In this document: positions 2,715 through 59,163 of the stretch, piece by piece | Numbering within the stretch: the first letter of the stretch is position 1 | Layout of the letters: every line of letters begins with the position of its first letter | Position numbers and translations under genes: made by a program | Notes under the pieces: model-generated | What the model was told of the DNA's origin: nothing | Databases searched by the model: none | Seen by the model: the letters and a program-made list of their open reading frames with translations, nothing else | Source: Prorocentrum cordatum | Lineage: Eukaryota; Sar; Dinophyceae; Prorocentrales; Prorocentraceae | Reading direction: 5' to 3' | DNA: 64,000 nucleotides | Assembly (NCBI GenBank): GCA_963575745.1 | Contig: CAUYUJ010019378.1 | Span: 62,001 to 126,000, forward strand

Positions 2715-2905
2715 GGTCACTACTGGTTCGAACCCCTCCCCCCCCCCACTCCGGAAAAGCGGGGGGGGGTCACTACCGGTTCGAACCCCCCCCCCCCCCC
2801 CCAGTTCATCATGAAAAGGGGGGGGGTCACTACCGGTTCGAACCCCCCCCCCCTCGAAAACCGGGGGGGGTCACTACCGGTTCGAACCCCCCCCCCCCCT
2901 CGAAA
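2715..2905 (+). repeat. Four copies of GGTCACTACCGGTTCGAACCC
   Basis: Units begin near 2,714, 2,768, 2,825 and 2,869 and are separated by poly-C then poly-G or GAAAA. The core GGTTCGAACC is a perfect palindrome and matches the RNA polymerase III B-box consensus GGTTCGANNCC. No A-box or tRNA cloverleaf accompanies it, so it is not a tRNA gene. Confidence 0.75.
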
Positions 2906-3500
2906 ACCGAGTGGGGGTGCGGACAGTGGTGGGGACGGTGTTGGTGGGGACAGTGGTGAGGGGACAGCGGGACAGTGGTGGGGACAGTGGGACAGTGGGA
3001 CAGTGGTGGGGACGGTAGTGGTGGGGACAACGGTGGGAACGGGGGGGACAGTGGACAGTGGTGGGGACGGTGGTGGTGGGGACAGTGGTGTGGGGACAGT
3101 GGGAATGAGGTGGAAACAGTGGGACAGTGGAGGGTACAATGGTGGTGGGGACAGTGGTGAAGGCGGTGGCGAGGACGGCGGTGGGACAATGGGACAGAGG
3201 TACAGTGGGGACAATGGTGGGGACAGTGGGGACAGTGGTGGGAACAGTGGGACAGCTCAGTGGGACAGCGGAGGAGTCAGTGGGACAGTGGGGACAGTGG
3301 GGATAGTCGGGCAGTGGTTGGGTCCGTGGAGACAGTGGGGAGAGTGGAACCGTGGTGGGAACAGTGGTGGGAACAGTGGGGACAGTGCGACAGTGGTGGG
3401 GGCACTGGTGGGGACAGTAGGGACGGTGGTGGAACCAGTGGGGACAGTGGTGGTGAGGACAGTGGTGCTGGGAACAACAGTGGGGGATGTGATGCGGACG
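2905..3500 (+). repeat. GGGACAGTGGTG minisatellite
   Basis: Degenerate tandem units of 9-15 bases built on GGGGACAGTGG(TG). The open frames across it give Gly/Asp/Ser/Val-rich repeats in several phases and are not genes. Confidence 0.85.
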
Positions 3501-4139: not shown

Positions 4140-4153
4140 GTGGAAGGATGATA

Positions 4154-4217
<64 letters not shown>

Positions 4218-6116
4218 GAAGGATGATGATGATGCTGATGATGATGGTAATGGTGATGGGGACGGCGATGGTGACGGTGATGATGACGACGAGATTGATG
4301 ATGACGATGTTGTTGCTGATGATGCTGTTGATAATGAGGTTGATGATGCTGTTGATAATGCTGATGATGAGGATGCTGATGAGGGTGATGGTGATGAAAA
4401 GATGATGACAGTGATGGTGATGCTGATGGTGATGTGATGATGGAGCTGATACTGATATTGATGATTCTGAGGTTGATGATGATGACTATGTTGCTGTCGA
4501 TGACAAGGTTGATTATCATGCTGATGATCGTGATGGTGACGATGAGGATGATGATGATGATGATGATGACGACGGTGGCGTTGATGGTGATTGGGGTGAT
4601 CATGATGATGAGGATGATGATGATGTTGATGCTGACTTGGTAGTGCTGCTGTTGTTGATTCTGATGATGACGATGACGATGCTTGTGGTTATGATGCTGC
4701 TGATGGTGATGCTGATGCTGATGCTGATGATGTTGGTAGTGATACTGATGGTGTTGTTGATGATGATGATGCTGATCATGCTGCTGCTGATGATGCTGAT
4801 TCTGCTGTTAATGGTTTCGCTGCTGCTGATGCTGCTGAAGATTCTGCTGTTAATAGTAATTGATGACGCTGATGATGCTGCTGATGATGATGGTGAAGAT
4901 GTTGATGACTATGCTGTTGCTGATGCTGATGTTGATGCTGATGATGATGTTGATACTGATGATGATGGTGCTGCTGATGATGCGTATGATGACTGTGATG
5001 GCGATGCTGATGAGGATGATGATAATGATGCGGTTGATGCTGATGCTGCTGAGGATGATGCTGACGTCGATGATGATCATGCTGACGATGACGATACTGA
5101 TGTCAATGACGGTGGCGGTGATGATGGTAACGATGATGATGGTGGTGATGATGGTGAGGTCGGTGAAGCTGATGCTAATGATGATGATGCTGATGATGTT
5201 TGATGACGACGATGATGAGGATGGGGATGAGGACGAGGATGGTGTTGATGAGGATGCTGGTGGTGATGATGATGAATACATATGCTGCTGATGATGCTGG
5301 TGATGGTAAAGAGGAGGAGGAGACGGAGGAGGAGCAGGCGGAGGAGGGTAAGGCGGATGGGAGTGTCATGCTCCGCAGCTCCATCGGGGGGAGGGGAAGG
5401 GCGGGGGGGGGGGGGGAGGGATGGTGATGAAGAAGAATAAGTCGATGCTGATGCGGCTGATGATGATGACGGTGATGGTAATGGTGATGGTTATAATGCT
5501 GACGATGTTGATGATGGTGACGGTGATGATGAGGTTGTTGATGTTGATGCCGATGGCGTTGATGATTATGAAGATGAGGATGTTGGTGACGATGATGATG
5601 ATGCTGGTGTTAGTGATGATGATGGTGATGATCATGATGATTATGATGATGATGATTAAGCTGATGATGCTGATGATGATGATGATGCTGACGGTGCTGA
5701 TGATGATGATGATGAGGAGGAGGAGGCGGTGGAGGGGAGCGTCATACTTCCCAGCGCCGTCGGGTGCAGGGAAAGGATGATGATGATGATGCTGTTGATG
5801 ATAATGATGATGATGACGATGATTATTCTTATGAAGATGACGGCGATGGTGATGCTGATGATGATGATGATGATGACGAGGTTGATGGTGTTGATTATGT
5901 TGATGATGCTGATGACGTTGATGGTGATGAAGATGATGATCAATAATATTATGATGCTGATGCTGCTGATGATGATGACGACGATGGTGGAGCTGATTTT
6001 TGCTGATGATGCTGATGATGGTGAGGAGGGGGAGTAGGAGGAAGGGGAGCGTCATGCTCCGCAGCGCCGTCGAGCGGAGGGGAAGGAGGAGGGGGAAGGA
6101 TGACGTTGGTGATGAT

Positions 6117-6147
<31 letters not shown>

Positions 6148-7111
6148 AGGAGGATGCTGATGCTGATGCTGATGCTGAAGCTTCTGCTGATGAGGATGAG
6201 GAGGAGGAGGAGGAGGAGGAGGATGATGATGATGATGATGATGATTATTCTTATGAAGATGACGGCGATGGTGATGATGATGATGATGGTGATGATGATG
6301 CTGAGGATGATGCTGACGTCGATGATGATCATGCTGACGATGACGATACTGATGTCAATGACGGTGGCGGTGATGATGGTAACGATGATGATGGTGGTGA
6401 TGATGGTGAGGTCGGTGAAGCTGGTGCTAATGATGATGATGATGCTGGTGATGTTTGATGACGACGATGATGAGGATGGGGATGAGGACGAGGATGGTGT
6501 TGATGAGTATGCTGGTGGTGGTGATGATGAATACATATGCTGCTGATGATGCTGGTGATGGTAAAGAGGAGGAGGAGACGGAGGAGGAGGAGGCGGAGGA
6601 GGGTAAGGCGGATGGGGAGTGTCATACCCCGCAGCGCCATCGGGGGGAGGGGAAGGAGGGGGGGGAAGGATGGTGATGAAGAAGAAAAAGTCGATGCTGA
6701 TGCTGCTGATGATGATGACGGTGATGGTAATGGTGATGGTTATATTGCTGACGATGTTGATGATGGTGACGGTGATGATGAGGTTGTTGATGTTGATGCA
6801 GATGGCGTTGATGATTATGAAGATGAGGATGGTGGTGACGAGGATGATGATGCTGGTGTTAGTGATGATGATGGTGATGATCATGATGATGATGATGATG
6901 ATGAAGCTGATGATGCTGATGATGATGATGATGATGATGACGGTGCTGATGATGCTGATGATGATGATGATGAGGAGGAGGAGGCGGTGGAGGGGAGCGT
7001 CATACTTCCCAGCGCTGTCGGGTGCAGGGGAAGCTTGATGATGATGATGCTGTTGATGATAATGATGATGATGACGATGATTATTCTTATGAAGATGACG
7101 GCGAACGGCGC

Positions 7112-7159
<48 letters not shown>

Positions 7160-7572
7160 CGAGGTTGATGATGATGATGATGATGCTGATGATGCTGATG
7201 ACGTTGATGGTGATGAAGATGATGATCAATATTATTATGATGCTGATGCTGCTGATGATGATGATGACGACGATGGTGGTGCTGATTTTTGCTGATGATG
7301 CTGATGATGGTGAGGAGGGGGAGTAGGAGGAAGGGGAGCGTCATGCTCCGCAGCGCCGTCGAGCGGAGGGGAAGGAGGAAGGGGCAGGATGACGTTGGTG
7401 ATGATGAGGAGGAGGAGGAGGAGGAGGAGGAGGAGGAGGATGCTGATGCTGATGCTGATGCTCAAGCTTCTGCTGATGAGGATGAGGATGAGGAGGAGGA
7501 GGAGGAGGAGGAGGATGATGATGATGATGATTCTTATTATTATTATGGGGATGACGGCGATGGTGATGATGC

Positions 7573-7622
<50 letters not shown>

Positions 7623-7740
7623 GTGATGGTGGTGGTGGTGGTGGTGATGCTGCTGCTGGTGATTGTGGTGACCAGGAGGGGTTGTTGGAGGAGGAGGAGG
7701 AGGAGGAGGAAGAGGAGGATGACCAGGAAGAACCATGAAG
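4140..7740 (+). repeat. (GAT)n satellite with ~1.26-1.29 kb higher-order repeat
   Basis: About 3.6 kb of GAT/GCT/GAG trinucleotides. All three forward phases stay open for long distances (poly-Asp, poly-Met and mixed), as do reverse phases, which marks them as repeat translations. A non-trinucleotide spacer of about 40 bases, GTCATRCTCCGCAGCGCCRT followed by a G-rich stretch, interrupts the array near 4,096, 5,363, 5,741, 6,051, 6,621, 6,999 and 7,340. Equivalent spacers lie 1,258, 1,258 and 1,289 bases apart, so at least two long higher-order units are present. Confidence 0.9.
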
Positions 7741-14099: not shown

Positions 14100-15383
14100 C
14101 TACGCTGTCTTCAGCTTGTCGTGGCACACGCGCAGGATCAGTAGTCCTGGCCACATTATCAAGGAGACGAGCATGATCAAGTGACTCCATCCAATCCAGC
14201 CTCCCCAGTGAAACACCTGATGGTACTTCACAAGAAAGCTGTGCAAGCCAAGCGGCTGCGAGGCTAGCAACACATATAATGCCAGAACAGAGATCGATAG
14301 CAAGCGTAGCAGCCATCCAACCTCATCCTCCCATCATCCTCATCATCATCCCACCCCCACCCAGCCAGACAAAAGCAGACGGAGGGGGGGGGGAAGAGGA
14401 AGCTCTCAGGAGTCCCAGTAGGCACTCTGCCTACAATATCGGCACGCCATTGCCCGCTTCGTGCTGGATGAGCTCCGTAACAGAGCGCACGCACGACAGC
14501 GAGGAGCTCGATAAGGAACACCAGGAGATTCGACAGCAGGAGGAAAAACATCATCTGGAGTAGTGGCCGCGCAGAGGCACGGCTTGTAGATCACCATCTT
14601 GTGCAGGGAGCCAGCGGCGGACACGCTGAACGTGGACATCGCGTTGGCGGTGCCGTCGCCATCCGGAAAGGCATCGCCAGGCGCATCGCGATCTGGCTCC
14701 GAGGGATATCCGGCATGAAGCGAGACATCGCCGAGTCGACCAGCACGAACAGCTTCGCGCAATTCGGCAGAGAGGTCGCCGCGAACATCCACGAGTCGCT
14801 CAGCAGAGGCATGACGAACTGGAGGCAAGCCGTCGTCAAGTCGACCAGCACGAACAGCTTCACGCGATTCGTGAGGAAAGTCACCGGGGACATCCACGAC
14901 ACGCTCAGCATCATCAGGAACTGGAGGCGAGTCGTCATCACGTGGACCAGCACGAACTGCTTCACGCGGTTCGGGAAGGCCACAATGAACGTCCACGAAT
15001 CGCTCGGCGGAAACAGCACCATCAGCGCCATGTGGAACATTCAGATCGCGAGTAGCACCTGCAGGAAGTTGAAGCCGATGATGGGGAACAGTACCATCGC
15101 GAAGCTGGTTCTCCTCCTGCAGGTTCGGCGAGACGACGCCACCAGACTGGCCCAGCGTATTGGCGAGCTCCGTCAGGAGGAACTCTGATTTGACACGGCT
15201 GATGTGCTTAACGAGGGCGAAGCTGGTGTCGACGTGCTCGAGCCTCCGCCGCAACGACCGCTGGGACTTGTCTTTGAAGAGCGTGCGTGCGGCCACACCA
15301 AGGCCAGCGAAGTCGCGACCCGTGGTGTGGCAGATCATGCGCAGAGCCTGGCCATGGAGGCGAACAATGAGTTCCTCGGCCAT
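14100..15383 (-). pseudogene. DinoSL-tagged retrogene for a repeat-containing membrane protein (frameshifted)
   Basis: The minus-strand ATG at 15,383 opens MAEELIVRLHGQALRMICHT and stays protein-like for about 95 codons. After that the best frame (GC-rich third positions) shifts by one phase near 15,100. That second frame encodes a hydrophobic stretch, FAMVLFPIIGFNFLQVLLAI, is cut by a TGA at about 15,041, and continues as three tandem ~35-residue repeats sharing NRVKLFVLVD and SDSW cores (15,030 to ~14,720). The frame changes again near 14,650 and 14,570. Further membrane segments follow: FFLLLSNLLVFLIELLAVV, then LLSISVLALYVLLASQPLG and a last one before CHDKLKTA and the stop at 14,100-14,102. 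Between about 14,440 and 14,315 lies a possible intron (GTAGGC...AG with a long pyrimidine tract). No family is recognised. The number of breaks argues for a decayed copy; sequencing indels are an alternative. Confidence 0.6.
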
Positions 15384-15435
15384 GGAATCAACCGAAGATC
15401 AAAACACATCGAACCTAATACAAGGCGCGCCGCAG

Positions 15436-15457
15436 CTTGAGCCACAATGGCTACGGA
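15436..15457 (-). promoter_or_regulatory. Relict dinoflagellate spliced-leader sequence
   Basis: On the minus strand this 22-mer contains CCGTAGCCATTGTGGCTCAA. The known DinoSL is identical except for one T where this has G. The leader is followed by CTGCGG, not by the GTA splice donor of a spliced-leader RNA gene, so it is the fossil of an already trans-spliced mRNA. It sits 52 bases before the ATG at 15,383, a normal 5' UTR distance. Confidence 0.85.
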
Positions 15458-15559
15458 GGATTGAGAGGTGGGAGAAGGAGGAAGATGAGGAAGAGTGAGC
15501 GCAGACTCCGAGATCTCTAGGTGCTGGAGCTCGTCGGGAGCCTTGGAGGGGGTGTATAG

Positions 15560-16230
15560 GGTTCTGGAAGGAGGATGGAGGGGGGTTGGGTGTCTCTTGG
15601 GGCCATGTTGGATTCCTTGGGGGGCAATATTGGGGCAATCTTGGGCACCATCGATTCACAAACGGGGCGGGCATATCTGTGCCCTGCCCCCCCCCCAGCG
15701 GTGCCCTGACAGCGGCCTCTTGGAGCCCTTTTGCATCGTTCTTGGACCCTCTTGGGGCAGTCTTGGGCCCCTTAAGCCTTAGGGGCCCTTCTTAGGGCCG
15801 CCTTGGGCCATCCTCGAGCCACCTTGAGGCCTTGAGAGCCCATCGGGAGCGAACCGGCGAGACGACAAGTCACATTGAACAAACGTTAGGGTTTTGAAGG
15901 GTTTGGGCCTATTGAGGGTATCCTTGGGAGGCTCGGAGGGCTCTTGGCGCCGTCCTGGGTCGGTCTTGAGGACTATTGGAGGCATGTTGGTGTCTATCTT
16001 AAACCATCTCGGGTATCCTGAGCGATCTTGGAGGCCATATTGGGCTGTGCGGAGCCTTCTTGGAGCCATCTTGGGCCAACAACAAGAGCCTCTGACACCT
16101 CGCGGAACGCCCCCTCCAGACCCAGGGGGGGGAGGGTGAGGGGGAGAGGGAATCCCTTCCCCCAAAGGGAAAGGGGCTCAGCAGAACGAGCTCGCTCGAC
16201 CACTCACGTCCTAGGGCTGGCGGGATTTCC
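15560..16230 (+). repeat. Composite repeat: CTTGGRGCC periodic tract, G-rich core, hairpin, conserved tail
   Basis: At 15,575-16,085 CTTGGGGCC/TTCTTGGAGCC words recur about every 10-11 bases or multiples of that. Next come CCTCTGACACCTCGCGG, CCAGACCCAGGGGGGGGAGG with further G-runs, and an AATCCCTTCCCCCAAAGGG hairpin. The last part is GAGCTCGCTCGACCACTCAC then GGGCTGGCGGGATTT. The same order recurs at 34.6-35.5, 38.7-39.6 and 44.2-45.0 kb, and inverted at 37.0-37.5 kb. Confidence 0.65.
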
Positions 16231-22929: not shown

Positions 22930-23400
22930 CGGGGGAGCCTCATGGAAGCGTTCATGGGGCGTTGGAGGGCTCAGAGGCTCACAGCCTGCCTGGGTAGTGG
23001 GTCAGAATCCTCATGGATGCTTCTTGGGATCTGTTCGGAGGGCTGTTAGTGGCCTCTGGAGGCAGTTTGAAGGCCGCATAGGACCTCTTGGGGGCCTCTT
23101 GGGAGCCTCCCGGGAGCTTCTTGGGGCGGTGAGCTCGAACTGTCGGTTCGTGTTCGCCCTTTGGGGCCCTCTTGGGACATTCTTGGGAGCGTCTTGGGCC
23201 GTATTGGAGGCTGGCCGTATTGGAGGCCTCTTGGGCCGTTTTGGAGGCATCTTGCCGTCAAAGACCGCCGAAAATTCAATACATGTTGCCTCTTGGGAGT
23301 GCTCTTGGAGGCCTCTCGGGGTGTCTTGGAGGCGTTTTGGGTCGTGTGAAGGCTAGCTGGAGAGATCTTTCGGCGACTTTGGGCCCTCGTCCCTCTTGAA
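22930..23400 (+). repeat. CTTGGGRGCC periodic tract
   Basis: CTTGGGAGCC, CTTGGGGCC and CTTGGAGGC words recur at 10-11 base steps or multiples, with a few unrelated stretches. It belongs to the dispersed 10-11 bp family. Confidence 0.6.
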
Positions 23401-24170: not shown

Positions 24171-24261
24171 CAGCCCACATCATCATTACCATCATCACCA
24201 TCATCACCACCATCACCATCACCATCACCACCACCATCGGCATTATCCTCATTATCATCAT

Positions 24262-24305
<44 letters not shown>

Positions 24306-24431
24306 GCATCATCATCATCATCATCACCACCATCACCGTCGTCGTCGTCGTCGTCGGCGGCATCGTCATAATCATCATCATTATCATCAGCATCATCATC
24401 ATCATCATCATCAGCATCAGCATCAGCATCG

Positions 24432-24479
<48 letters not shown>

Positions 24480-24642
24480 CCACCACCACCACCACCACCA
24501 CCACCACCACCACCACCACCACCACCACCCCCGTCGTCGTCGTCGTCGTCGTCGTCGGCGGCATCGTCATCGCCATTGCCATCGTCATCGTCATCAGCAG
24601 CATCACCATCATCATCACCATCATCATCACCATCATCATCAC

Positions 24643-24678
<36 letters not shown>

Positions 24679-25794: not shown

Positions 25795-25865
25795 TGGAGG
25801 AACATGGATGATGATGATGCTGCTGATGATGGTGGTGGTGATGATGATGGTGATGCCGATGCTGG

Positions 25866-25927
<62 letters not shown>

Positions 25928-26406
25928 CTGACGACGCTGATGCTGATGATGCTGCTGATGATGATGACGACGATGAGGAGGAGGAGGAGGAGGAGGAGGA
26001 GGAGGATGCTTCTGATGATGATGCTGATGATGATAGTGGTGATGATGCTGCTGATGCTGATACCGTTGAATCTGCTGCTGATGATGACGATGATGATGAT
26101 GCTGGTGCTGACGATGATGACGATGATAATGGTGAGGATGAGGATGATGAGGAGGATGATGATGAGGATAATGTTGACGACTGTGAGGATGGGGATGAGG
26201 ATGAGGATAAGGATGATGCTGGTGCTGATGATATGATGATGAGGATGATAATGATGCTGATCACGATGATTCTGGTGGTGGTGATGATCATGATGATGAG
26301 TATGATGCTGATGGTGATGATGCTGCTGATGCTGATGATGAGGATGATGGTGGGGATGGTGGTGGTGATGGTGATGATGATGAGGAGGAGGATGAGGATG
26401 AGGATG

Positions 26407-26457
<51 letters not shown>

Positions 26458-26668
26458 GTAGTGGTGATGGTGATGATGATGCTAATGATGATGCTGAGGA
26501 GGAGGATGAGGAGGAGGAGGAGGAGGAGCAGGAGGAGGATGAGGAGGAGGTGGAGCAGGGAGGAGTACGACGGTGGCCGAGAAAGAGGGGAAATAAAGGG
26601 TGAGCGAGGAGGAGGAGGAGAAGCAGGAGGAGGAGGAGCTGGAGGAGGAGGAGGAGGAACATGGATGC

Positions 26669-26724
<56 letters not shown>

Positions 26725-27665
26725 GTGAGGGTGGGGATGGGGATGATGATGGTGGTGGTGGTGGAAGTGATGATGATGATGATGGTGATGGCGATGCTGA
26801 TGATGATGCTGATGACGATGGCGCTGATGATGCTGCGGCTGATGATGATGATGATGACGATGACGATGGTGATGATGATGATGAGGATGAGGTTGATGCT
26901 GCTGATGATGATGCTGATGATGATGATGGTGGTGATGATGTTGCTGATGCTGATACCGATGATGATGACGCTGCTGAGGATGATGGTAATGCTGATGCGG
27001 ATGGAGATGACGATGATGATGGTCAGGATGATGATGAGGATGACGAGGATGAGGATGAGGCTGCTCATGATGATGGTGATGATGATGATGATGCTGCTAA
27101 TGATGATCACGATGGTGAGGGTGGGGATGGGGATAATGATGAGGATGAGGACGATGATGCCGATGCTGATGCTGATGGTTGTGATGGTGATGATGATGGT
27201 GATGATGATGCTGATGATGATGATGCTGGTGATGATGATGCTGATGATGATGCTGCTGGTGATGATGATGCTGATGATGATGATCATGATGATGCTGCTG
27301 ATGATGATGATGATGGTGGTGATGATGATGATGGTGGGGATGGTGGTGGTGATGGTGAGGGTGATGATGATGAGGAGGAGGAGGATGAGGATGAGGATGA
27401 GGATGATGGTGGTCGTGGTGATGATGATTATGATGCTGAGGAGGAGGAGGATGAGAAGGAGGAAGAGGAGGTGGAGCAGGGAGGAGTACGAAGGTGGCTG
27501 AGACACATGGCGGAAATAAAGGGAGAGCGAGGAGGAGGAAGAGGAGGAGGAGGAGGAGCAGGAGGAGGAGGATGAGGAGGAGGAGGAGCAGGAGGAGGAG
27601 GAGCAGGAGGAGGAGGAGCAGGAGGAGGAGGAGGAGGAGGAGGAGGAGGAGGAGGAAGAGGAGGG
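25795..27665 (+). repeat. (GAT)n/(GGA)n satellite
   Basis: About 1.9 kb of GAT, GCT and GGA triplets. Two near-parallel blocks (about 25,800-26,640 and 26,660-27,540) each pass from GAT into GAG/GGA and end in GAGCAGGGAGGAGTACGA, then AAATAAAGGG and GAGCGAGGAGG, so the array contains a long higher-order repeat of about 900 bases. The 627- and 764-codon open frames are repeat translations. Confidence 0.9.
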
Positions 27666-30159: not shown

Positions 30160-30395
30160 CGGAGTCTCTTCGTGATAGTTTCTTGGGGTCCTATAGTGGC
30201 GTCTTGATGGCATCTTGGCGGTCCCAGGGTTCTCGCGGAGCGTCTTGGCTGCCTCGGGAGAGCCTCTTGGGTGTCTTTTGGCCTCTTGGGGACGTCTTGG
30301 GGACTCTTGGGGCCTCCTGGGCGCATCTTGGAGCCCTCTTGGGGCACCCTTGGGAGCCTTGGGGGCCATCTTGGGGCCACCTAGGAAGAGATCGT
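30160..30395 (+). repeat. CTTGGGGCC periodic tract
   Basis: CTTGGGGCC, CTTGGGAGC and CTTGGCGG words spaced at about 10-11 bases or multiples. Confidence 0.6.
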
Positions 30396-30959: not shown

Positions 30960-31515
30960 CGGCATACCCTCACACGTTTTGCGGCATCATAGGGAGCTCC
31001 GCCGTTGCACGCGTCCGCGCCACCCACCACGGCGAACCGTTCACACAGTTCGTGGCCCCAGAGGGAACACCATTTATTGCCACAGTGACGACGTTTGCAC
31101 GCGTCATCGCCACCCGTTACTGTGCACCCCTCACACGGCTCGTGGCCACAATCGGGGGCTCCACCTAAGGCCCGAGTGGCGACGATTGCATGCGTCCGCG
31201 CCGCCCATCACGGCGCATCTTTCACACGGTTCGTGCCCCCTATTGGGAGTCCCACGTACGGCCCCAGTGGTGACGTTTGCACGCGCCCGCACCATCCATT
31301 ACGGCGCACCTCTCGCACGGTTCGTTGCCCCATATGGAGTTCCGCTTAAGGCTTTTGTGGCGACGTTTACGTGTACCCGCGCAACCCATTACGGCGCACC
31401 GCTTACATGGTTCGTGGCCTTGTTTCTATAGGGAGTTCTATTTAAGGCCCCAGTGGCGACGCTTGCACACGTCATTACGGCCTCACACGGTTCGTGGCCC
31501 CAAAAGGAGGCTTCG
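30960..31515 (+). repeat. ~90-bp tandem array upstream of the LINE
   Basis: Units start at GGCGACG near 31,178, 31,269, 31,359 and 31,455, with earlier, more diverged units. Each has GCACGCGTCCGCGCCACCCA, TTACGGCGCACC, TCACACGGTTCGTGGCCCC and GGGAGTTCCACCTAAGGCCC. The array abuts the LINE coding sequence without a stop, so the endonuclease frame runs into it. Related units occur at 35,600-35,818, 39,690-40,000 and, inverted, 40,180-40,690. Confidence 0.8.
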
Positions 31516-32200
31516 CAGTTTGAGAGTTTTCAGGTGGTGCCAGATGGGCGTCCTGCATTTCTTGATTTCTCGTCTGGGACCGTGAGGTGGAGGATATGTT
31601 CTGCTCACCTACCTCATTCAGAGCGTCCAGACCACGAATACGACGCAGCCCTTGCAGCACTGTCAGAAAATATCCCAAAAGGTCGGCCAGGAAGATTGGT
31701 AGTCATCGGTGTGGATGCAAATGCGCAGGTTGGAACGCAGACAGAACACGACCATCCAGGCTGCAATGGGAAATTTGGTTATTGCAGAAGAAATGGCCGG
31801 GGACATGTATTTCTACAATGGGCGAGGGGAGAGTCACTGACGCTCGTGAACACTTTCTTCCCGAAGCCGGACGAGAAACCTTGGACGCACAGAATGTGGA
31901 GTAATGAGGATCTCAGGCAAATCGATTACGTTGTCGTGGACAGAAGGCTCACGCATGGATTGAAGAACGCAGAGACATACGACGCTTTGCTCCAACAGAC
32001 AGACCACCGAGCAGTGTGGGCAAAATTTGGAGGGAATCAGAAACCACCGAAAAGGGCGCATCCTCCCAAGAGCGCCAGAGGTTGGACATTGCACGAGCCG
32101 GTGGAGAAGTACCAAGCATCGATCACAGCAGTTTTGGAAAACGCTCCCGAAAAAATAAACATAGTACTTCGATCACGTCGAAGATATACGAAGAAGCATC
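31512..32200 (+). pseudogene. LINE endonuclease domain, N-terminus lost
   Basis: This is an endonuclease/exonuclease/phosphatase-fold domain, which in non-LTR elements nicks target DNA to prime reverse transcription. Visible are VIGVDANAQVG (31,700s, the family's GD-N motif in a variant form), QIDYVVVDRR (about 31,918) and TDHRAVW with the catalytic Asp-His at 32,002-32,007. The usual first third, with its metal-binding Asn and Glu motifs, is absent because the 90-bp array occupies that position. It therefore cannot encode an active nuclease. The reading continues one phase over after about 32,200. Confidence 0.8.
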
Positions 32201-32229
32201 TCGTCACGGGCGTGGGGGACACCACGGGA

Positions 32230-34217
32230 ACAATAGTCAGGAGACAGACCCGCCACATGTAGTGGAGTTGCGGTCGGCACGGAAGGCTGCCGAGTCGAAA
32301 GAAGATCGGAAGATTTTGTCTCAGAAGCTAATTCGGGCAATGAGACAGACGGCGAGGGATCGCAACAACAAGAAATTATACATGCTGATCGAGGCAGGAA
32401 CGACACAACATCTTTCTAGACTTCAGGGCGCCCCAAGGATACGCAAACACATTGGGGGGTTGAAAGACACGAGAGGCAATTTACAAACAGGCAGAATTCA
32501 AATAGCAGAGGTTTTCGCACAGTTTTATGAGGCGCTATATTTGGCACCTTGTTCAGACCAGTCGACGGGACACTGCCAGAGGACAGCGCCGGCTGCGCAA
32601 GAGGACGTGGAGGACGACATCAACTCAGCCTTGAGGAAGATGAAGCGCAACAAGACAGGAGCTGACGACGGCATTGTTGCAGAATTGTTGAAAGATGCAG
32701 GGCGGAATTTGGTATGTCGTCTTGGCACGCATGCTCTGCGACTTACTCAACGGCGAATCTGCCGCACCGGATGCCTGGAGCATCTCGAAGATAGTCGTTC
32801 TGTTCAAGAAGGGAGATTTGACGTTACCGAAGAACTACCTGCCTATCGCAATCATCCCGGTGCTGAGCAAGTTGCGCAGCAGCATGATCCTCCGACGTAT
32901 CGAGAGGGTTTTCGAGAAGAAACACACTCCGGAAGAAATGGGTTTCAGAACAAATCACGGTCGTGTTGATTTAGTTCATACTCTCAGAATGGTGAGCGAG
33001 AAGAGCGTGGAGTGGGGCGAGACTGTCTGGGCAGCCTCCACTGACTTGGAGAAGCTGTCGGCAAAATCATTCACTCAGCTGTCTTTTCCGGCCTGCGTGC
33101 AGCTGGAGTGCGCGAGATCGACATCCACGCAATTGAGAACATGTACCACAACCAGTTTGGTTTCCAATTGGAAAGTGATTTGCGAAGCAGATATTTCAAG
33201 ATCCTGAGAGGCGTACGACAGGGGGATCCCTTATCACTTATTCTTTTCACCAACACTGTCCGGGTGCTAATGGCGGAACTGAAAGAAAGCTGGGGGAAGC
33301 GAGGCCTCGGGACAGCAATTGGCAGCAATGTTTCGAGGAAGGGGCGCTTGACTTATCTGGTGTTCGCGGACGACGCAGCTCTTGCAGTCAAATCAAGAAG
33401 AGCAATTGGGATCACTCTTAAAGAAATAAGCGCTGCCTTGAAGGAGGTTGGGCTCCACGTGAAAGTCGGGAAGTGCAGCGCGCAGTGTTCAGGCAGCTCC
33501 AGCGCGGGCGGCAAAGGCATCCGGATACAAGATCAAACCATACCTGTTCACAGCTGCAACGAAGGCTTCAAGGCGCTGGTGGCCATCGTGACGTTCAACG
33601 GCAACGCAGACGTAGAGTTCGAAGCAAGGCTGGCGGCAGCTTGGGGTAAATTTCATGAACTGAAATCACTATTACTCAAACATGATGCTTCTGAAGCGCG
33701 GCGTCTCCGTCTTTTCGATGCCACGGTCACAAAAACAGCATTATGGTGTTCGGGGACGTGGAACTTGACTGCGTTGCAGATGCGCCAGCTGCGCACGACG
33801 CACAGAGCCATGCCGCGGAAAATGGCTGCCCCCAGAAGACGGCCAGACGAGGATCACATCGCATGGGTGAAGAGAGGGGCGCAAGCCGCGGAGCAAAAAG
33901 CAGCGCGCGCAGGAGTGTCCTGTTGGCTGAGAGCTCATTTACGGACAAAATGGAGATGGGCTGGCCGCTTCGCAAACATGCACAGCGAAAGATGGGCAAG
34001 GAGAGCAACGGTGCGGAGGGACGCCGAATGGTGGAGCCATCAAGGTAAACATTCAAGGTCGAGGCCAGTGAGACAGCGGCCAGGAAGATTTCGCAGATGG
34101 GAAGACGAATTAGTCAATTTCGCAATTGTTAAACGGTGGGATCAATGGACCTACGCAGCCACGACCGCCGATTGGGACAAGCAAGAGGAAGAGTTCGTGA
34201 ACTTCTCATGGAGGTGA
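32230..34217 (+). pseudogene. LINE reverse transcriptase and C-terminal region (frameshifted)
   Basis: Reverse transcriptase of a non-LTR element. Landmarks in order: RNKTGADDGIVAELLKDAG (near 32,650), LFKKGDLTLPKNYLPIAIIP (32,800s), STDLEKAV with the first catalytic Asp (about 33,045), RGVRQGDPLSLILF (about 33,208) and FADD at 33,363-33,374. Frames change near 32,700 and at about 33,052, inside the DLEKAV motif itself. The C-terminal part (33,700-34,217) is Arg/Trp-rich, ends NFSWR, and lacks an RNase H domain. It shares family features with other dinoflagellate LINEs, but no exact clade can be assigned by eye. Confidence 0.85.
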
Positions 34218-34627
34218 GAGTGCACCGCGCTGATTTGTCCCGGTCCTTTTCCGAAGGGCCAGCGTGCTCAAGCACGCCTGTCGCCCATCTTTGGGTCGCC
34301 CTCTGCGGCGGTGACAGTTCGTCCGTTCGTTTAAGGCCCCAGTGGCGACGCCGCTGAATTGGTGCGAGTATGCTCGTGACGCGCCGGCATGGCGGAGATG
34401 GGAAGCTAAATTCTTCACGCTTCGCGCATCCCCACCAGCCCATCTCAAAACAGCAACTCTTGCGAAGCATGCCGACAGTCGTGTTTTTCAGGCGTGTTTC
34501 CGCCTGCCCCCGCATATCTCCCCTGTCCCTCCTTCCCCCCGCCTCCTTGCACAACCTCCTTGTGGTGGAAGCGGGAGAAGGACGAGGCGGAGGAGGAGGA
34601 CGAGAAAACGCTCCTCGTGGTTTGAGT

Positions 34628-35080
34628 CGCTTGGGGTTTCTCGTCCTGGTGTGAGTCGTTCGGGCCCTTTTTCCTGGTGTGAGTCGTTCGGGCTCTTCGT
34701 GGTGTGAGTCGTTCGGGCTCTTCGTCCTGGTGTGAGTCGTTCGGGCTTCTCGTGGTGTGAGTTGTTCGGGCCCCTCGTCCTGGTGTGAGTCGTTCGGGCC
34801 CCTCCTCCTGGTGTGACTCGTTCGGGCTCCTCGTGGTGCGAGTCGTTCGGGGCCCTCGTCGTGGTGTGAGTCGTTCGGGCTCCTCGTGGTGTGAGTCGTT
34901 CGGGCGCCTCGTCCTGGTGTGAGTCGTTCGGGCCCCTCCTTCTGGTGTGAGTCGGTCGGGCTCTTCGTGGTGTGAGTCGTTCGGGCCCCTCGTCCTGGTG
35001 TGAGTCGTTCGGGCTCCTCGTGGCGTGAGGCGTTCGGGCACCTCGTCCTGGCGCAAGTCGTTCGGGCCCCTCGTAGTAGG
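34628..35080 (+). repeat. GTGTGAGTCGTTCGGGC array, alternating 25/28-bp units
   Basis: About 17 units alternate between endings CTCTTCGTG and CCCCTCGTCCTG, so the true period is a 53-bp dimer. No stop codon occurs on the minus strand in two phases, which gives long Arg/Thr/Pro/His-rich open frames that are not genes. Confidence 0.85.
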
Positions 35081-35089
35081 AGGCCGTTT

Positions 35090-35525
35090 GGGGCGTCTTG
35101 GGGGCCTCTTGGCGGCCCCAGGGGCTTCCAGGAGCGTCTTGGGTGCCTCGGGGGAGCCTCTCGGGGCCTCTTGGGGGCCTCTTGGGGGCATCTTGGGGGC
35201 CTCTTGGAGGCCTCTTGGGGCCTCTTGGGGCTCTTTGGGAGGGGTCTGGGAGGTATCTTGGGGCCATCTTTCGGGCGATCGATCACAGATGGGGCGAGCA
35301 TTTTTGTCAGCCCCCCCGTCGGGGCCAGAATCCTCGCGAGGGGTGTCGTTTTTTAGCCCTCCCAGGAGTCGAAAAAGACCCCTCCAACCACCCGCGAAAG
35401 GACTTCTCCAGGTCCAGGGGGAGGGGGTAGGGGGAGGGGTAAACCCCTCCCCGAAGGGGAAGAAGGGGGGTTGAGAACAGAGAGAGCTCGCTAAACCACT
35501 CACGCCCAAATGGCTGGTGGGATTT
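35090..35525 (+). repeat. Composite repeat: periodic tract, G-rich core, hairpin, tail
   Basis: CTTGGGGGCCT units of 10-11 bases (35,090-35,280), then CGATCGATCACAGATGGGGC. The G-rich core CCAGGGGGAGGGGGTAGGGG is near 35,413, followed by AACCCCTCCCCGAAGGGGAA and CTCGCTAAACCACTCACGCC. Confidence 0.75.
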
Positions 35526-37005: not shown

Positions 37006-37829
37006 AGCGAGCTCTCTCTGTTCTCACCCCCCCTTCTTCCCCTTCGGGGCGGGGTTTACCCCTCCCCCTACCCCCTCCCCCTGGACCTGGAGAGGTCCTT
37101 TCGCGGGTGGTTGGAAGGGGTCTTTTTCGACTCCTGGGAGGGCTAAAAAACGACACCCCTCACGAGGATTCTGGCCCCGACGGGGGGACTGACAAAAATG
37201 CTCGCCCCATCTGTGATCGATCGCCCGAAAGATGGCCCTCAGATGCCTCCCAGACCCCTCCCAAAGAGCCCCAAGAGGCCCCAAGAGGCCTCCAAGGGGC
37301 CCCCCAAGAGGCCCCCAAGAGGCCCCCAGAGGCTCCCCCGAGGCACCCAAGGCGCTCCTGGAAGCCCCTGGAGCCGCCAAGAGGCCCCCCAAGACGCCCC
37401 AAACGGCCTCCAAGAGGCTCCCAAGAGGCCCGAAGAGGCTCCCCCAAGGCACCCAAGGAGCCCGAACGACTCACACCAGGACGAGGGCCCCGAACGACTC
37501 ACACCACGAAGAGCCCGAACGACTCACACCAGGAGGAGGGGCCCGAACGACTCACACCAGGACGAGGCGCCCGAACGACTCACACCACGAGGAGCCCGAA
37601 CGACTCACACCAGGACGAGGGCCCCGAACGACTCACACCACGAGGAGCCCGAACGAGTCACACCAGGAGGAGGGGCCCGAACGACTCACACCAGGACGAG
37701 GGGCCCGAACAACTCACACCACGAGAAGGGCAAGCGGACACACGCCTAAAAACCACGACTGTCGGCATGCTTCGCAAGAGTTGCTGTTTTGAGATGGGCT
37801 GGTGGGGATACGCGAAGCGTGAAGAATTT
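37006..37829 (-). repeat. Inverted, shortened copy of the 34.4-35.5 kb segment
   Basis: This is the reverse complement of 34,409-35,489 and equally of 38,499-39,580, with fewer GTGAGTCGTTCGGGC units. Landmarks in order: AGCGAGCTCTCTCTGTTCTC, the C-rich core, CGATCGCCCGAAAGATGG, the CCCCAAGAGG tract, CGAACGACTCACACC units, and GGGCTGGTGGGGATACGCGA at 37,796-37,815. Confidence 0.9.
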
Positions 37830-38251: not shown

Positions 38252-39907
38252 CGACCGCCGATTGGGACAAGCAAGAGGAAGAGTTCGCGAACTTCTCATG
38301 GAGGTGAGAGTGCACCGCGCTGATTTGTCCTGGTCCTTTTCCGAAGGGCCAGCGTGCTCAAGCACGCCTGTCGCCCATCTTTGGGTCGCCCTCTGCGGCG
38401 GTGACAGTTCGTCCGTTCGTTCAAGGCCCCAGTGGCGACGCCGCTGAATTGGTGCGAGTATGCTCGTGACGCGCCGGCATGGCGGAGATGGGAAGCTAAA
38501 TTCTTCACGCTTCGCGTATCCCCACCAGCCCATCTCAAAACAGCAACTCTTGCGAAGCATGCCGACAGTCGTGTTTTTCAGGCGTGTTTCCGCCTGCCCC
38601 CGCATATCTCCCCTGTTCCTCCTTCCTCCCGCCTCCTTGTACATCCTCCTTGTGGTGGGAGCGGGAGAAGGACGAGGCGGAGGAGGAGGGAGAGAAAGCG
38701 CTCCTCGTGGTTTGAGTCGTTTGGGGTTTCTCGTCCTGGTGTGAGTCGTTCGGGCCCTTCTTCCTGGTGTGAGTCGTTCGGGCTCTTCGTGGTGTGAGTC
38801 GTTCGGGCTCTTCGTCCTGGTGTGAGTCGTTCGGGCTTCTCGTGGTGTGAGTTGTTCGGGCCCCTCGTCCTGGTGTGAGTCGTTCGGGCCCCTCCTCCTG
38901 GTGTGACTCGTTCGGGCTCCTCGTGGTGTGAGTCGTTCGGGGCCCTCGTCGTGGTGTGAGTCGTTCGGGCTCCTCGTGGTGTGAGTCGTTCGGGCGCCTC
39001 GTCCTGGTGTGAGTCGTTCGGGCCCCTTCTTCTGGTGTGAGTCGGTCGGGCTCTTCGTGGTGTGATTCGTTCGGGCCCCTCGTCCTGGTGTGAGTCGTTC
39101 GGGTTCCTCGTGGCGTGAGGCGTTCGGGCACCTCGTCCTGGTGCAAGTCGTTCGGGCCCCTCGTAGTAGGAGGCCGTTTGGGGCGTCTTGGGGGCCTCTT
39201 GGCGGCCCCAGGGGCTTCCAGGAGCGTCTTGGGTGCCTCGGGGGAGCCTCTCGGGGCCTCTTGGGGGCCTCTTGGGGGCATCTTGGGGGCCTCTTGGAGG
39301 CCTCTTGGGGCCTCTTGGGGCTCTTTGGGAGGGGTCTGGGAGGTATCTTGGGGCCATCTTTCGGACGATCGATCACAGATGGGGCGAGCATTTTTGTCAG
39401 TCCCCCCGTCGGGGCCAGAATCCTCGTGAGTGGTGTCGTTTTTTAGCCCTCCCAGGAGTCGAAAAAGACCCCCCCAACCACCCGCGAAAGGACCTCTCCA
39501 GGTCCAGGGGGAGGGGGTAGGGGGAGGGGTAAACCCCTCCCCGAAGGGGAAGAAGGGGGGTTGAGAACAGAGAGGGCTCGCTAAACCACTCACGCCCAAA
39601 GGGCTGGTGGGATTTTGCAGGATGCAGTAGAGAAGCGCACGGTGCTTTTCCATCCCTCCCCGTAGTCTCGCCTGATGCGGTGGTCCGTCCGTCCGTCAGT
39701 GGCGACGCTTGCATGCGCCCGCGCCACCCAGTACGGCGCGTCCCTCACACGTATTGTGCCCCAATTGGGAGCTCCACCTAAGGCCCCAGTGGCGACGCTT
39801 GCACGCGCCAGTGCCACCCATTACGGCTCATTTTTGTCCATGGTTCGTGGCCCCATGGGGAGTGACGTTTGCATGTTGCCTTTGTGGCGATGTTTACATG
39901 CGCCCCC
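38252..39907 (+). repeat. 1.66-kb direct duplication, copy 2 (5'-truncated LINE tail)
   Basis: It matches 34,162-35,818. It begins inside the LINE's last exon-like segment, keeping only TADWDKQEEEFANFSWR and the stop at 38,305-38,307. This could be a 5'-truncated LINE insertion with a long repeat-rich 3' UTR or part of a segmental duplication. TATCCCCACCAGCC lies at 38,517-38,530, the 25/28-bp array at 38,718-39,170 and the periodic tract at 39,180-39,370. Confidence 0.9.
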
Positions 39908-42170: not shown

Positions 42171-42479
42171 AACGGCAAGAAAGTGTAGATCATGCGATTT
42201 GGTGGCGCTCGGGTTGCGGGACCCAATGGGTCAGGGAGATGGCCCGGACGACCTCTGAGAGAAGCCTCAGCGGCCATTTTGGCGCACGCTGGAAGTGCTG
42301 AAGCTCCCAACCGCAGATGTCGCACTGGTACACCCCAGGGAGCGCGCGGGGAGGCCAGTGCGGCGAGGTGGCCACACCGCATGGTGAATCAGTGTGGATT
42401 TGGGGTGGCCGCGCAGTTTTGGGACTTCACCGCTACCTTTTCCTCGTCGCCACGGCAGGATTCGCCCCGAACTTCCTGC

Positions 42480-44229: not shown

Positions 44230-45000
44230 ACCCTTTGAACCATCTTGGAGTATTCGCGGATTCTCTTGGGGTCCTCTTGGGGCAATCTCTGTGCTCACGT
44301 GGGACTCGTTTGAGGGGTCTTGGGGTCGTCTTGCAGCGCTTCGGGGGGGTCTTCGGGGCCTTCTTGGAGCTCTCGTGGGGGCCTCGTGGGAGCCCTGGAG
44401 GGAGTCCTGGGGCTATCGTGGAGGGTGTCGGTGAAGCGATAGGGGTCCTAACGTCTGGCCCCCCTTATCTGGGGCCCTCGAAATCGCCCCTTGTGCCCTC
44501 TTTGGGTGCTCTTGGGGCGATCTTGGGCGCTCATGTAGCCGCCGTTGGGGCTTCGTTGGCGCATCTTGGGGCTCGCTTGGGTCATATCAGGGCATCTTCA
44601 GGTCTCTACAAAGCATCGGAAGCGAAACGGCGAGACGGCACACATCATGGATGTGCTTCCTAGGTGTTCGAATGAGTCTGGCTTCTTGGAGGGGTCCCGA
44701 GGGGGCTCCGCCGAGAGCACTTGGAATCGTCGTGTGACCCTCTTGGGGCATCTTGCAGGCATGCTGGAAGTCATATTGAGCCACCGTCGGCTATGTTGAG
44801 CCATCTTGGAGGGCCTTGTTGGAGCCATCTTGGGCGAACGAGGACCCTCTGACACCTCGCGGTACCCCCACCCCCGTCCAGATCCTGGGGGAAGGGGGTA
44901 GGGGGAGGGATGCACTTCTCCTCGAAAGGGGGGAAGGGAAGTGGAAGAGAAACACGCCCTAAAGCACGTCCGCCCAGAGGGCTGGTCTGATTCTGGTCAG
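44230..45000 (+). repeat. Composite repeat: periodic tract, G-rich core, hairpin, tail
   Basis: CTTGGGGTC/CTTGGAGCC words run through 44,235-44,840. Then CCTCTGACACCTCGCGG, the core CCTGGGGGAAGGGGGTAGGG near 44,883, a CTTCTCCTCGAAAGGGGGG hairpin and CCTAAAGCACGTCCGCCCAG. The order matches 15.56-16.23 kb. Confidence 0.65.
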
Positions 45001-45830: not shown

Positions 45831-46450
45831 TCGGGTGCCTCTTGGGGTCCGTCTTGAGGCCTCTTTGGGGGCCGTTTTGGGGCGTCTTGAAGGCTTCTTA
45901 TGGGTGCGTTGGGGCTCCACTGGGGGCCCATTTAGGCCTCCTGGGAGCTTTCTGGGGCAGAAGACTACGATTTTCGGTTCGTGCCCGTCTTGGGGCTGTC
46001 TTTGAGCCCTTGTGAGTCGGTTGGGGCGCCTCTAGGGCCGTCTTGAAGCCCTCCTGGGTCGTCTTGGAGCCCTCCTGAGGGCCTCTTGGGCCGTCTTGGG
46101 GCGTTCTTAGGGGCCTGGGGGGCCATCTTGGAGCGTCGGAAGCTGAGTGGGTCGAGAACCCTAAACACATTGAATCAACCGATAGGAAATTCATTGGTTT
46201 GGCTTCTGGGCCCCTTTGAGAAGGCCCTTGTGGCTTTCTTGGGGCGCGTCGAAGGCTGCTTGGGCCGACAGGAGGCCGTCGTAGACGTCTTGGGCCGATT
46301 GTTCGGCAATTCGAGGCCCTCTTGGGCCGTCTGGGCGGCCTCTCGGGGCCCTCTGGGCCCGTCTTGGGGCCCTCTTGGGCCCGAACAAGTCACGCGAAAA
46401 GATGCCCCGGGCACCAGAAGGCACCTGGCAAGCCCCAAGAGAGTTGGCAA
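45830..46450 (+). repeat. CTTGGGGCC periodic tract, clearest 10-11 bp spacing
   Basis: In 46,030-46,115 successive units CGTCTTGAAGC, CCTCCTGGGT, CGTCTTGGAGC, CCTCCTGAGGG, CCTCTTGGGC and CGTCTTGGGGC measure 11, 10, 11, 11, 10 and 11 bases. Confidence 0.7.
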
Positions 46451-50109: not shown

Positions 50110-50365
50110 TGTGAAAGTCAGATTAGCAAGGATGTGAGTTATAGGATGAGGTTTAGAATTATCTATGTTGTTGCTCTCACTCGCTCATGCTTGCGCTCTC
50201 TTGTTTATTATTGCCATTTGTGGCTTGAACCCGCCCAGTTGAGGCGGGAGGGTGGACGCACCTATCGAACGCAGAGTTTGATCCGGTATAAGATATCATA
50301 TCATCTGCCTGTCTTCTACTTGCATCAAGAGGTTGTGGGTGGAGAGATTTGGATCATGATTTACA
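50110..50365 (+). repeat. 5' LTR
   Basis: It begins TGTGAAAGTC and ends TTTACA. It contains GGCTTGAACCCGCCCAGT and a GGTATAAGATATC stretch near 50,285 that could serve as a TATA-like promoter element. Confidence 0.9.
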
Positions 50366-50366
50366 C

Positions 50367-50378
50367 TGGTAGCAGAGC
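50367..50378 (+). promoter_or_regulatory. Primer-binding site, initiator-Met-tRNA type
   Basis: TGGTAGCAGAGC starts two bases after the 5' LTR. It differs by one base from the TGGTATCAGAGC used by many copia elements, which pairs with the 3' end of initiator methionine tRNA. Confidence 0.75.
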
Positions 50379-50640
50379 TGAATCAGTCCACGGTACGAGG
50401 ATTACATACAGAGTGGCCTTGCAGACAGATATGCTGGCGCTCTATTACATCCTCGCGGTGCTTAACCACTGCGCTCATCAACAGATCACGGTGATCGACA
50501 AAACGTTCGAAATCATTACCTACAACAGCTTGGACGGCTATCGAGATATCAACAACATCCCGGGCGAGCAGCATAACTACAGCAACGATCGGGACAGCTA
50601 CTACATCGGTAACAAAATCAATAACAACACAGTCATCCAG

Positions 50641-52600: not shown

Positions 52601-52602
52601 CC

Positions 52603-53074
52603 AGATGGACATGCTGTAGTGGACACTGCGTGCCTACGTGGATGTGGAGGTTCAATATCATTGGAGGGCTACACAGAGGACGGCAGAGTCATCACGCGGA
52701 TGAGAGGATCATCCATGCGCTCCCGAGGCGCGAATGATAGCGCCCCGGTCACGGCAGAAGGGGAACAAGAGGTGACGGCGGGACTTGCTGGAGCTGACGT
52801 GAACCCACGCTTCCAGAGGTTGCCGAAGTCAAAGGCGCCAATACTGCTGAGCATCTACCAGCTGGAGGAGCTCGACACAGTGATATACATCAAGGATCAG
52901 AAGGCGGACTTCAAGGCGATCAACAAGTACGGAGTGCCTCTCAACAAAACGGAGAAGGGACACCTGACGTTCTCGCTCAAGGAGTGGCCGAAGAAAGAGA
53001 CGACAAATATCGAGCCATCAGTAATGTCCGACGAGATCGACATCTGGAGTGCGGAGGTCCAGGAGATCGATTAG
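52603..53074 (+). pseudogene. Aspartic protease
   Basis: In the phase after gag, DGHAVVDTACLRGCGGSISL carries the active-site Asp at 52,622-52,624. The usual DTG or DSG is DTA here. Further on, APILLSIYQLEELDTVIYIK and YGVPLNKTEKGHLTFSL match the C-terminal part of copia-type proteases. The middle, including the flap, appears shortened. The enzyme would cleave the Gag-Pol precursor. The frame stops at TAG 53,072-53,074, but reading continues in the same phase for about 55 more codons (QRKQIETWEKEIQDKLDKCQ), so the stop is a mutation inside a linker. Confidence 0.75.
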
Positions 53075-53249
53075 GGCATCCTACGGCGGAAGCAGAGGAA
53101 GCAGATCGAGACGTGGGAGAAGGAGATTCAGGACAAGCTGGACAAGTGCCAGCAGATCATGGACACGCTGAAGGCAGACCCAGGAGGAAGCGGCCCATCA
53201 TCTGCAAACTCTACGCAGGTGGCACGGCAGCCACATCAGAAGCTCAGCA

Positions 53250-53835: not shown

Positions 53836-53959
53836 CAGCATGGTGGCTACGCCCGGTACGCCAACAACTTCGACGACATCAACTGTGACGAGTTCGAGGC
53901 CAACCCTGCGGAGACAGAGGCGTCGATGCACGCTAGTGCGGCGGCGATCTTCAGCAAGC

Positions 53960-59159: not shown

Positions 59160-59163
59160 CTAA
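59159..59163. repeat. Target-site duplication ACTAA (right)
   Basis: Matches 50,105-50,109. The first A overlaps the last base of the LTR if the LTR is taken to end in CA. Confidence 0.55.

What the first reader, a model, noticed from the sequence alone, without database searches (positions are those of the whole stretch)
15383..15457. Fossil spliced leader directly upstream of a minus-strand coding sequence
The 22-mer at 15,436-15,457 matches DinoSL with one substitution and is not followed by a splice donor, so it records an mRNA that was trans-spliced, reverse-transcribed and re-inserted. It identifies the organism group, fixes the 5' end of the gene and shows retroposition of host genes at this locus. 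The substitution lets this insertion be ranked by age against other recycled copies.
Basis: partly seen in the sequence, partly recalled or inferred. Interest (0 to 1): 0.8.

Follow-up and report, generated by a model that had tools for sequence, protein, structure and literature searches.

The report
Spliced-leader scar marks a recycled gene
A stretch of algal (dinoflagellate) DNA carries, just in front of a gene-like reading frame, a slightly worn copy of the tag that dinoflagellates add only to RNA, so the sequence was most likely once an RNA message that was copied back into the genome; this is a known, common kind of event and the copy looks partly decayed.

Summary
15436-15457 (-) matches the 22-nt dinoflagellate spliced leader with one substitution. 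It is the only site within 3 mismatches in 64 kb, 0 of 100 shuffles gave one, and about 1.5e-6 were expected. It is followed by CT, not a GT/GC/GA donor, and lies 52 nt before the ATG of a 325-codon frame. Best reading: a retroposed, once trans-spliced mRNA. The only protein relative found is one Prorocentrum cordatum prediction, P0001. The kind is well documented, also in this species: a new member of a known kind. One substitution cannot date the insertion; older leaders would lie downstream, and none is there; the parent was not found; the frame is probably not an intact gene (coding-like phase shifts near 15,103, P0001's frame has a stop here, an out-of-frame ATG overlaps the start). Side finding: a 17.7%-GC viral-collection contig (L001) carries an mRNA-shaped, leader-tagged 978-bp block. 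The window's own genome could not be searched (machine unreachable, 12 attempts).

The parts
15436..15457 (-). Relict DinoSL, all 22 nt, one substitution (TTTT to TTGT) relative to DCCGTAGCCATTTTGGCTCAAG; no splice donor follows
15458..15497 (-). Pyrimidine-rich tract directly upstream of the relict (35 of 40 C/T); with the AG inside CCGTAG it could serve as a trans-splice acceptor (inferred)
   Evidence: 2.3% of 40-mers sampled every 10 nt on both strands are as pyrimidine-rich
15384..15435 (-). 52-nt 5'-UTR-like spacer between the relict and the ATG; no older relict in it; holds an out-of-frame ATG at 15409 (24 codons, overlapping the main start)
14406..15383 (-). ATG-to-stop reading frame, 325 codons; codons 13-58 match P. 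cordatum P0001 at 45 of 46
15104..15383 (-). The part with coding-like three-base periodicity in the ATG frame (GC by codon position 0.65/0.44/0.81 and 0.69/0.35/0.81)
14690..15103 (-). The part where coding-like periodicity moves to the +1 frame, the frame used by P0001 (140 of 151 residues match, with one stop here); holds a 105-nt repeat in 2.3 copies

Best explanation
An mRNA of a Prorocentrum cordatum (or close kin) nuclear gene was trans-spliced with DinoSL, reverse-transcribed and inserted on the minus strand. Its 5' end is at 15457; its 3' end, near or below 14400, is not defined. The genomic leader is complete (22 nt), so the DNA copy itself has not been through a further trimming cycle. 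The insert lies just downstream of a pyrimidine tract. With the AG inside its own leader it could be trans-spliced again, which would give transcripts with a full DinoSL joined to CCATTGTGGCTCAAGCTGCGG (inferred, not shown). The copy has since changed: one base of the leader, and probably the reading frame, so it is more likely a decaying retrocopy than an intact retrogene. Shown: the leader, its position, the absent donor and the relative. Inferred: reverse transcription, present transcription and the decay.
For: Leader match far beyond chance. No donor. The relict lies 53-74 nt before the ATG, inside the -50 to -100 zone that PMC6050394 gives as usual 5'-UTR length. Coding-like periodicity begins at the ATG (0 of 5000 shuffles reach its spread for 15383-15198). 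The N-terminal peptide is shared with a P. cordatum protein, 45 of 46. Genomic relicts, unlike those in transcripts, keep CCGTAG (PMC6616646). 477 retrogenes were reported in transcripts of P. minimum (the synonymy with P. cordatum is recalled) (PMC12014239, passages). Two kinds of reverse transcriptase are encoded in the window (RVT_1 and RVT_2).
Against: No poly(A) run (no run of 5 or more A in the 606 nt after the stop) and no target-site duplication was found (a weak test, since the 3' end is unknown and the flanks are low-complexity). No intron-bearing parent was found. The model of the relative P0001 omits 94 nt present here rather than the reverse. Only one leader unit is present. No RNA evidence could be obtained, and the assembly could not be searched.
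Confidence: 0.85

Rival explanations
1. An SL-like pseudogene: a degenerate SL RNA gene that has lost its donor and happens to stand before an unrelated reading frame.
For: Donor-less SL-like loci are reported in Fugacium kawagutii; all reported ones have several units, but the authors dropped single-unit candidates, so having one unit here does not speak against it (PMC6616646). A published SL RNA, KbrSL-3, has a non-canonical C in its donor site (PMC3101222, figure legend). The base after the leader could be a mutated donor.
Against: Coding-like periodicity starts 52 nt downstream at an ATG, with a peptide shared with a P. cordatum protein. No other SL within 3 mismatches in 64 kb and no Rfam family at gathering score in the window. 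The downstream sequence shows no resemblance by eye to the SL gene in L020.
Confidence: 0.07
2. Sub-reading of the retrocopy (not exclusive of the best explanation's origin): an intact, expressed retrogene; the 325-codon frame is translated as it stands and P0001 is a misprediction in its second half.
For: The frame is open for 325 codons (0 of 3000 Markov sequences of this length and composition were open throughout). The leader brings its own AG acceptor and lies after a pyrimidine tract.
Against: GC by codon position in the ATG frame turns from 0.65/0.44/0.81 to 0.88/0.51/0.36 after about 15,103, while P. cordatum coding sequence is 65.9% GC (PMC10666404). The only relative follows the +1 frame there, in which this copy has a stop. 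An out-of-frame ATG overlaps the start. Copies of the 105-nt repeat show no excess of third-position change in the ATG frame.
Confidence: 0.25
3. Sub-reading of the retrocopy: it kept an intron; the extra 94 nt relative to P0001 is an intron in the parent and is retained here.
For: P0001 joins the two frames across exactly this stretch, and in this copy the stretch can be taken to end in AG followed by G, as 79.7% of P. cordatum acceptors do. Intron-bearing retrogenes are reported (PMC6050394).
Against: The stretch has coding-like periodicity in the ATG frame (2 of 5000 shuffles reach its spread) and no GT, GC or GA start at the positions that would give P0001's join (read by eye). P0001's DNA could not be read.
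Confidence: 0.2
4. Chance match, or a chimeric assembly.
For: Of the two MAG contigs found with a leader one looks chimeric (L019).
Against: Expectation 1.5e-6. The leader, spacer and frame are contiguous, and a protein search independently points to a dinoflagellate.
Confidence: 0.02

Closest known systems
DinoSL-tagged retrogenes ('recycled' mRNAs; Slamovits and Keeling 2008 not read, known through PMC3229502, PMC6050394 and PMC12014239, each read in part)
   Same: DinoSL relict in front of a gene, no donor, 5'-UTR distance, AG inside the relict able to act as acceptor
   Different: One full-length genomic leader rather than the tandem truncated ones seen in transcripts. The frame looks decayed. 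No parent or transcript in hand. The changed base lies in the TTT(G) motif that PMC6050394 calls more conserved than other motifs of relicts
SL-like genes (donor-less SL loci of Fugacium kawagutii, PMC6616646, parts 1 and 2 of 3 read)
   Same: SL sequence without a splice donor
   Different: The reported ones have several SL units (single-unit candidates were dropped by the authors) and no coding frame is mentioned in the parts I read; here one unit leads into a coding-like frame
Predicted protein P0001 of Prorocentrum cordatum
   Same: 45 of 46 N-terminal residues; 140 of 151 in the second part when this locus is read in +1

Membership tests
DinoSL-tagged retrogene or retrocopy | DinoSL or relict in genomic DNA beyond chance | tested here: met
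DinoSL-tagged retrogene or retrocopy | Located upstream of a gene (within 500 bp in PMC8045281's method) | tested here: met
   52 nt before an ATG; coding-like periodicity from the ATG on
DinoSL-tagged retrogene or retrocopy | No splice donor after the leader (not an SL RNA gene) | tested here: met
   CAAG|CT
DinoSL-tagged retrogene or retrocopy | Parent copy with introns and fewer leaders (supporting, not required) | tested here: inconclusive
DinoSL-tagged retrogene or retrocopy | Transcript with a new DinoSL joined to the relict at CCA | not testable with these tools
   no RNA data
Functional retrogene | Conserved reading frame | tested here: inconclusive
   frame open, but phase shift, stop in P0001's frame, and no selection signal for the ATG or +1 frame in repeat copies
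LINE-type processed pseudogene | Poly(A) tract and target-site duplication | tested here: not met
   (weak test)
SL RNA gene | Splice donor directly after the leader | tested here: not met
   contrast L020; one published SL RNA with an irregular donor base

The most novel reading that the evidence does not exclude
The same cycle (trans-splice, reverse-transcribe, insert) that wrote this locus also writes dinoflagellate mRNAs into giant-virus genomes. L001, a viral-collection contig, holds a 978-bp GC-shifted block that starts exactly at a full DinoSL and stops at GGG|AAAAAA, and a second leader stands 126 bp upstream behind a partly duplicated flank. DinoSL would then be a readable tag of host-to-virus gene flow.
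Probability: 0.5. Interest if true: 0.65.

Novelty: new member of a known kind. Interest (0 to 1): 0.25.

Why it matters
The locus itself adds one example to a well-described class (477 retrogenes reported in transcripts of P. minimum, over 8,500 in each of two Symbiodinium genomes). Its use is as a clean single-cycle relict with the full 22 nt kept. It also shows that a relict plus a long open frame does not prove an intact retrogene. If the side finding in L001 holds, the leader becomes a tag for following mRNA-mediated gene flow from dinoflagellates into their viruses.

Tried and rejected
Older relict between leader and ATG: none. Any other leader in the window: none within 3 mismatches; 42268-42288 (5 mismatches of 21) was not looked into. 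Poly(A) and target-site duplication: none. Pfam on the frame, on P0001 and on the plus-strand frame over it: 0 families. PDB by sequence: 0. Phage DNA: no match. Viral contigs for the protein: 4 stretches matched a pattern, none confirmed. Another copy of 14300-16100 in the window: none except its internal 105-nt repeat and two short matches of 46-47 nt. Selection between repeat copies: no excess of third-position changes in the ATG frame or the +1 frame; most changes (7 of 29 and 6 of 21) fall at the position that is third in the stop-filled -1 frame and in a plus-strand frame open over 14630-15052 (141 codons). The counts are too small to choose. The 16-base variant GCCATTGTGGCTCAAG gave 17 stretches in viral contigs; I take this as chance level (my estimate from recalled collection size) and inspected none of the 17. 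The plus-strand frame 14481-15188 was considered, because its third positions are GC-rich in the repeat; it was set aside because it has no Pfam match and the only relative lies on the minus strand. This is a judgement, not a test.

Not pursued: structure prediction of the frame (one relative, frame uncertain).

Full report
What was checked. The 22-mer at 15436-15457 on the minus strand is TCCGTAGCCATTGTGGCTCAAG. It differs from the dinoflagellate spliced leader DCCGTAGCCATTTTGGCTCAAG (given in PMC6050394, parts 1 and 2 of 3 read) at one base, inside TTTT. It is the only place within 3 mismatches on either strand of 64,000 bases, and 0 of 100 dinucleotide shuffles hold one. From base composition 1.5e-6 sites with up to one mismatch to the 21-mer are expected. 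The next best site has 5 mismatches of 21 (42268-42288).

It is not an ordinary SL RNA gene. The leader is followed by CTGCGG. P. cordatum donors are GT 24.7%, GC 51.4% and GA 23.8% (PMC10666404, passages), and the Fugacium SL genes reported in PMC6616646 all continue with GU or GC (parts 1 and 2 of 3 read). One published SL RNA, KbrSL-3, has a non-canonical C in its donor site (PMC3101222, passages), so an irregular donor is not unheard of. By contrast L020, a contig of a bacterial MAG that I read as the end of a eukaryotic rDNA unit (by eye; no Rfam scan of it), has a perfect leader followed by GTACGC.

What lies behind it. After a 52-nt spacer an ATG at 15383 opens 325 codons to a stop that ends at 14406. 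The protein search returned a single relative at E up to 0.01: P0001, an unnamed partial protein of Prorocentrum cordatum (only the 7999 candidates sharing most words were scored). A second search with P0001 found only itself (332 candidates). The first 46 residues of P0001 match the ATG frame at 45 of 46. The remaining 151 match this locus at 140 of 151, but in the +1 frame, and one of the 11 differences is a stop codon in the window. P0001's model omits 94 nt that lie between the two parts here. Pfam and PDB gave nothing.

Is it an intact gene? Probably not. GC content by codon position of the ATG frame is 0.65/0.44/0.81 for 15383-15198 and 0.69/0.35/0.81 for 15197-15104, a typical coding pattern for a GC-rich genome. 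For 15103-14690 it is 0.88/0.51/0.36, which becomes 0.51/0.36/0.88 if read in +1. The spread was reached by 0, 2 and 0 of 5000 shuffles respectively; for the two remaining segments, 14689-14558 and 14557-14406, by 249 and 115 of 5000. As a control, 10 of 318 segments of 415 nt in the window are as periodic as the third segment. Listed at a slightly lower cut-off they are 12, and all 12 lie in or overlap the long trinucleotide arrays at 4147-7628, 24178-24678 and 25807-27454. A 105-nt repeat (2.3 copies; three ungapped copies of 65 nt) lies in the +1 part. Its copies do not show an excess of third-position changes in the ATG frame or in the +1 frame. The position that changes most is third in the stop-filled -1 frame and in a plus-strand frame open over 14630-15052, but the counts are small (7 of 29, 6 of 21). 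So the repeat gives no support for selection on either minus-strand reading, and which frame of that part was ever translated is open. An ATG at 15409, between leader and start, opens a 24-codon out-of-frame reading that overlaps the start. On the other side, the ATG frame is open throughout, which 0 of 3000 Markov sequences matched. I therefore put an intact retrogene at 0.25 and a decaying retrocopy higher. These two and the intron-retaining reading share the retroposed origin, so their odds are not to be added to the 0.85.

How it most likely works. The published model is that a trans-spliced mRNA is reverse-transcribed and inserted, and that on transcription a new leader is joined at the AG inside the old one, which trims its first seven bases (PMC3229502, passages; PMC12014239, passages and outline). 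PMC6616646 offers another source for the truncated relicts in transcripts, tandem-SL genes; that does not touch a single genomic leader before a frame. Here the AG of CCGTAG is intact, and 35 of the 40 bases before the relict are pyrimidines; 2.3% of sampled 40-mers are as rich. So the copy carries or has landed beside what a trans-splice acceptor needs; this is inferred, and the need for a pyrimidine tract in dinoflagellates is recalled from other splicing systems. PMC6050394 proposes that TTT(G) in the relict is a promoter and is its more conserved motif; this copy has lost it (TTGT), which, if that proposal holds, argues against a strong promoter here.

Which reverse transcriptase made the copy is unknown. 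The window holds an LTR-type element (RVT_2; direct repeats 50110-50367 and 58904-59161, 93% alike; that RVT_2 marks Copia-type elements is recalled) and a frame with RVT_1. Their presence is not evidence that either made this copy.

Older leaders accumulate downstream of newer ones, not upstream, and none is found between the leader and the ATG (best 8 mismatches of 15; 97.6% of 5000 shuffles do as well). One substitution gives no usable age. P0001 and this locus differ at 12 of 197 aligned residues (1 of 46 and 11 of 151), but silent changes cannot be seen. The parent gene is not identified, and P0001's model shows the opposite of the expected intron pattern.

Literature standing. Relict-tagged retrogenes are well known: 61 of 238 full-leader Alexandrium ESTs (PMC3229502), 9,339 and 8,564 genes in two Symbiodinium genomes (PMC6050394), and 477 in P. 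minimum transcripts (PMC12014239; that P. minimum is P. cordatum is recalled). I searched for the kind, not for this locus, and make no claim that the locus is or is not in print.

Side finding. To see where else the leader occurs I scanned the viral collection: the 21-mer pattern hit one stretch only, L001. Outside the insert this 7157-bp contig is 17.7% GC. A block of 978 bp at 49.5% GC (L001:1789-2766, -; the far end placed by a composition scan) starts exactly at a complete leader and carries a 254-codon frame; the GC drop falls at GGG|AAAAAA. A run of six A in so AT-rich a genome is weak evidence of a poly(A) tail. A second complete leader lies at 2893-2913, and the AT-rich sequence before the two is partly duplicated. 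The neighbouring large frame matches glycosyltransferase families; that the contig is of a giant virus is my reading of its place in the viral collection, its size of frames and its composition. The protein of the block has no relative but itself, so its dinoflagellate origin rests on the leader and the composition, and an assembly artefact is not excluded. Two literature searches, 'giant virus' with 'dinoflagellate' and 'spliced leader' (13 papers, listing only except PMC10235124, of which I saw passages) and 'dinoflagellate', 'giant virus', 'horizontal gene transfer', 'DinoSL' (0 papers), showed me no such report; this is not proof of absence. PMC10235124 (passages) reports the reverse direction for an RNA virus: leaders within 500 bp of 6 of 26 endogenised RdRp frames.

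Limits. No RNA data were available. The organism assignment rests on P0001 and the leader.

Noticed in passing
L001:1789-2766 (-), and 2893-2913 (-): An AT-rich (17.7% GC) viral-collection contig carries a 978-bp, 49.5%-GC block that begins exactly at a full DinoSL and holds a 254-codon frame; the GC drop falls at GGG|AAAAAA. A second full leader lies 126 bp upstream, with part of the flank duplicated. It looks like a dinoflagellate mRNA copied into a giant-virus-like genome.
   Followed up: partly
15594-16073, 23086-23229, 30181-30369, 35096-35256, 37271-37421, 39186-39346, 44243-44362, 46062-46373, 63673-63751: TCTTGG (109 on +) and CCAAGA (23) together 132 against 41 expected from a Markov control (mean of 20); spacings of TCTTGG peak at 10-11, 21-22, 32-33, 42-44, 52-54, 62-65, a period near 10.7 bp, close to the DNA helix turn, in a group said to lack nucleosomes.
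   Followed up: partly
50110-59161 (+): Near full-length LTR retroelement: terminal direct repeats of at least 258 nt, 93% alike, and an RVT_2 domain.
   Followed up: partly
31432-34217 (+): Retroelement-like frames, RVT_1 in 33045-34217, spread over several frames.
   Followed up: no
34610-35074, 38700-39164, 37456-37721: The same 53-bp repeat array in two direct copies and one on the other strand, with similar flanking frames, apparently local duplications.
   Followed up: no
4147-7628 and 25807-27454: Very long GAT-type trinucleotide arrays, 3.5 kb and 1.6 kb.
   Followed up: no
14630-15052 (+): A plus-strand frame open for 141 codons over the 105-nt repeat, whose third positions are the ones that change most between repeat copies; it may be the reading under selection, if any.
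   Followed up: no
L020:4334-4354 (-); L019:32-52 (+): Two Dehalococcoidia MAG contigs carry a perfect DinoSL: L020 reads as a eukaryotic rDNA end followed by an SL gene with donor (contamination); L019 has the leader at its edge behind a TCA repeat, a probable chimera.
   Followed up: partly
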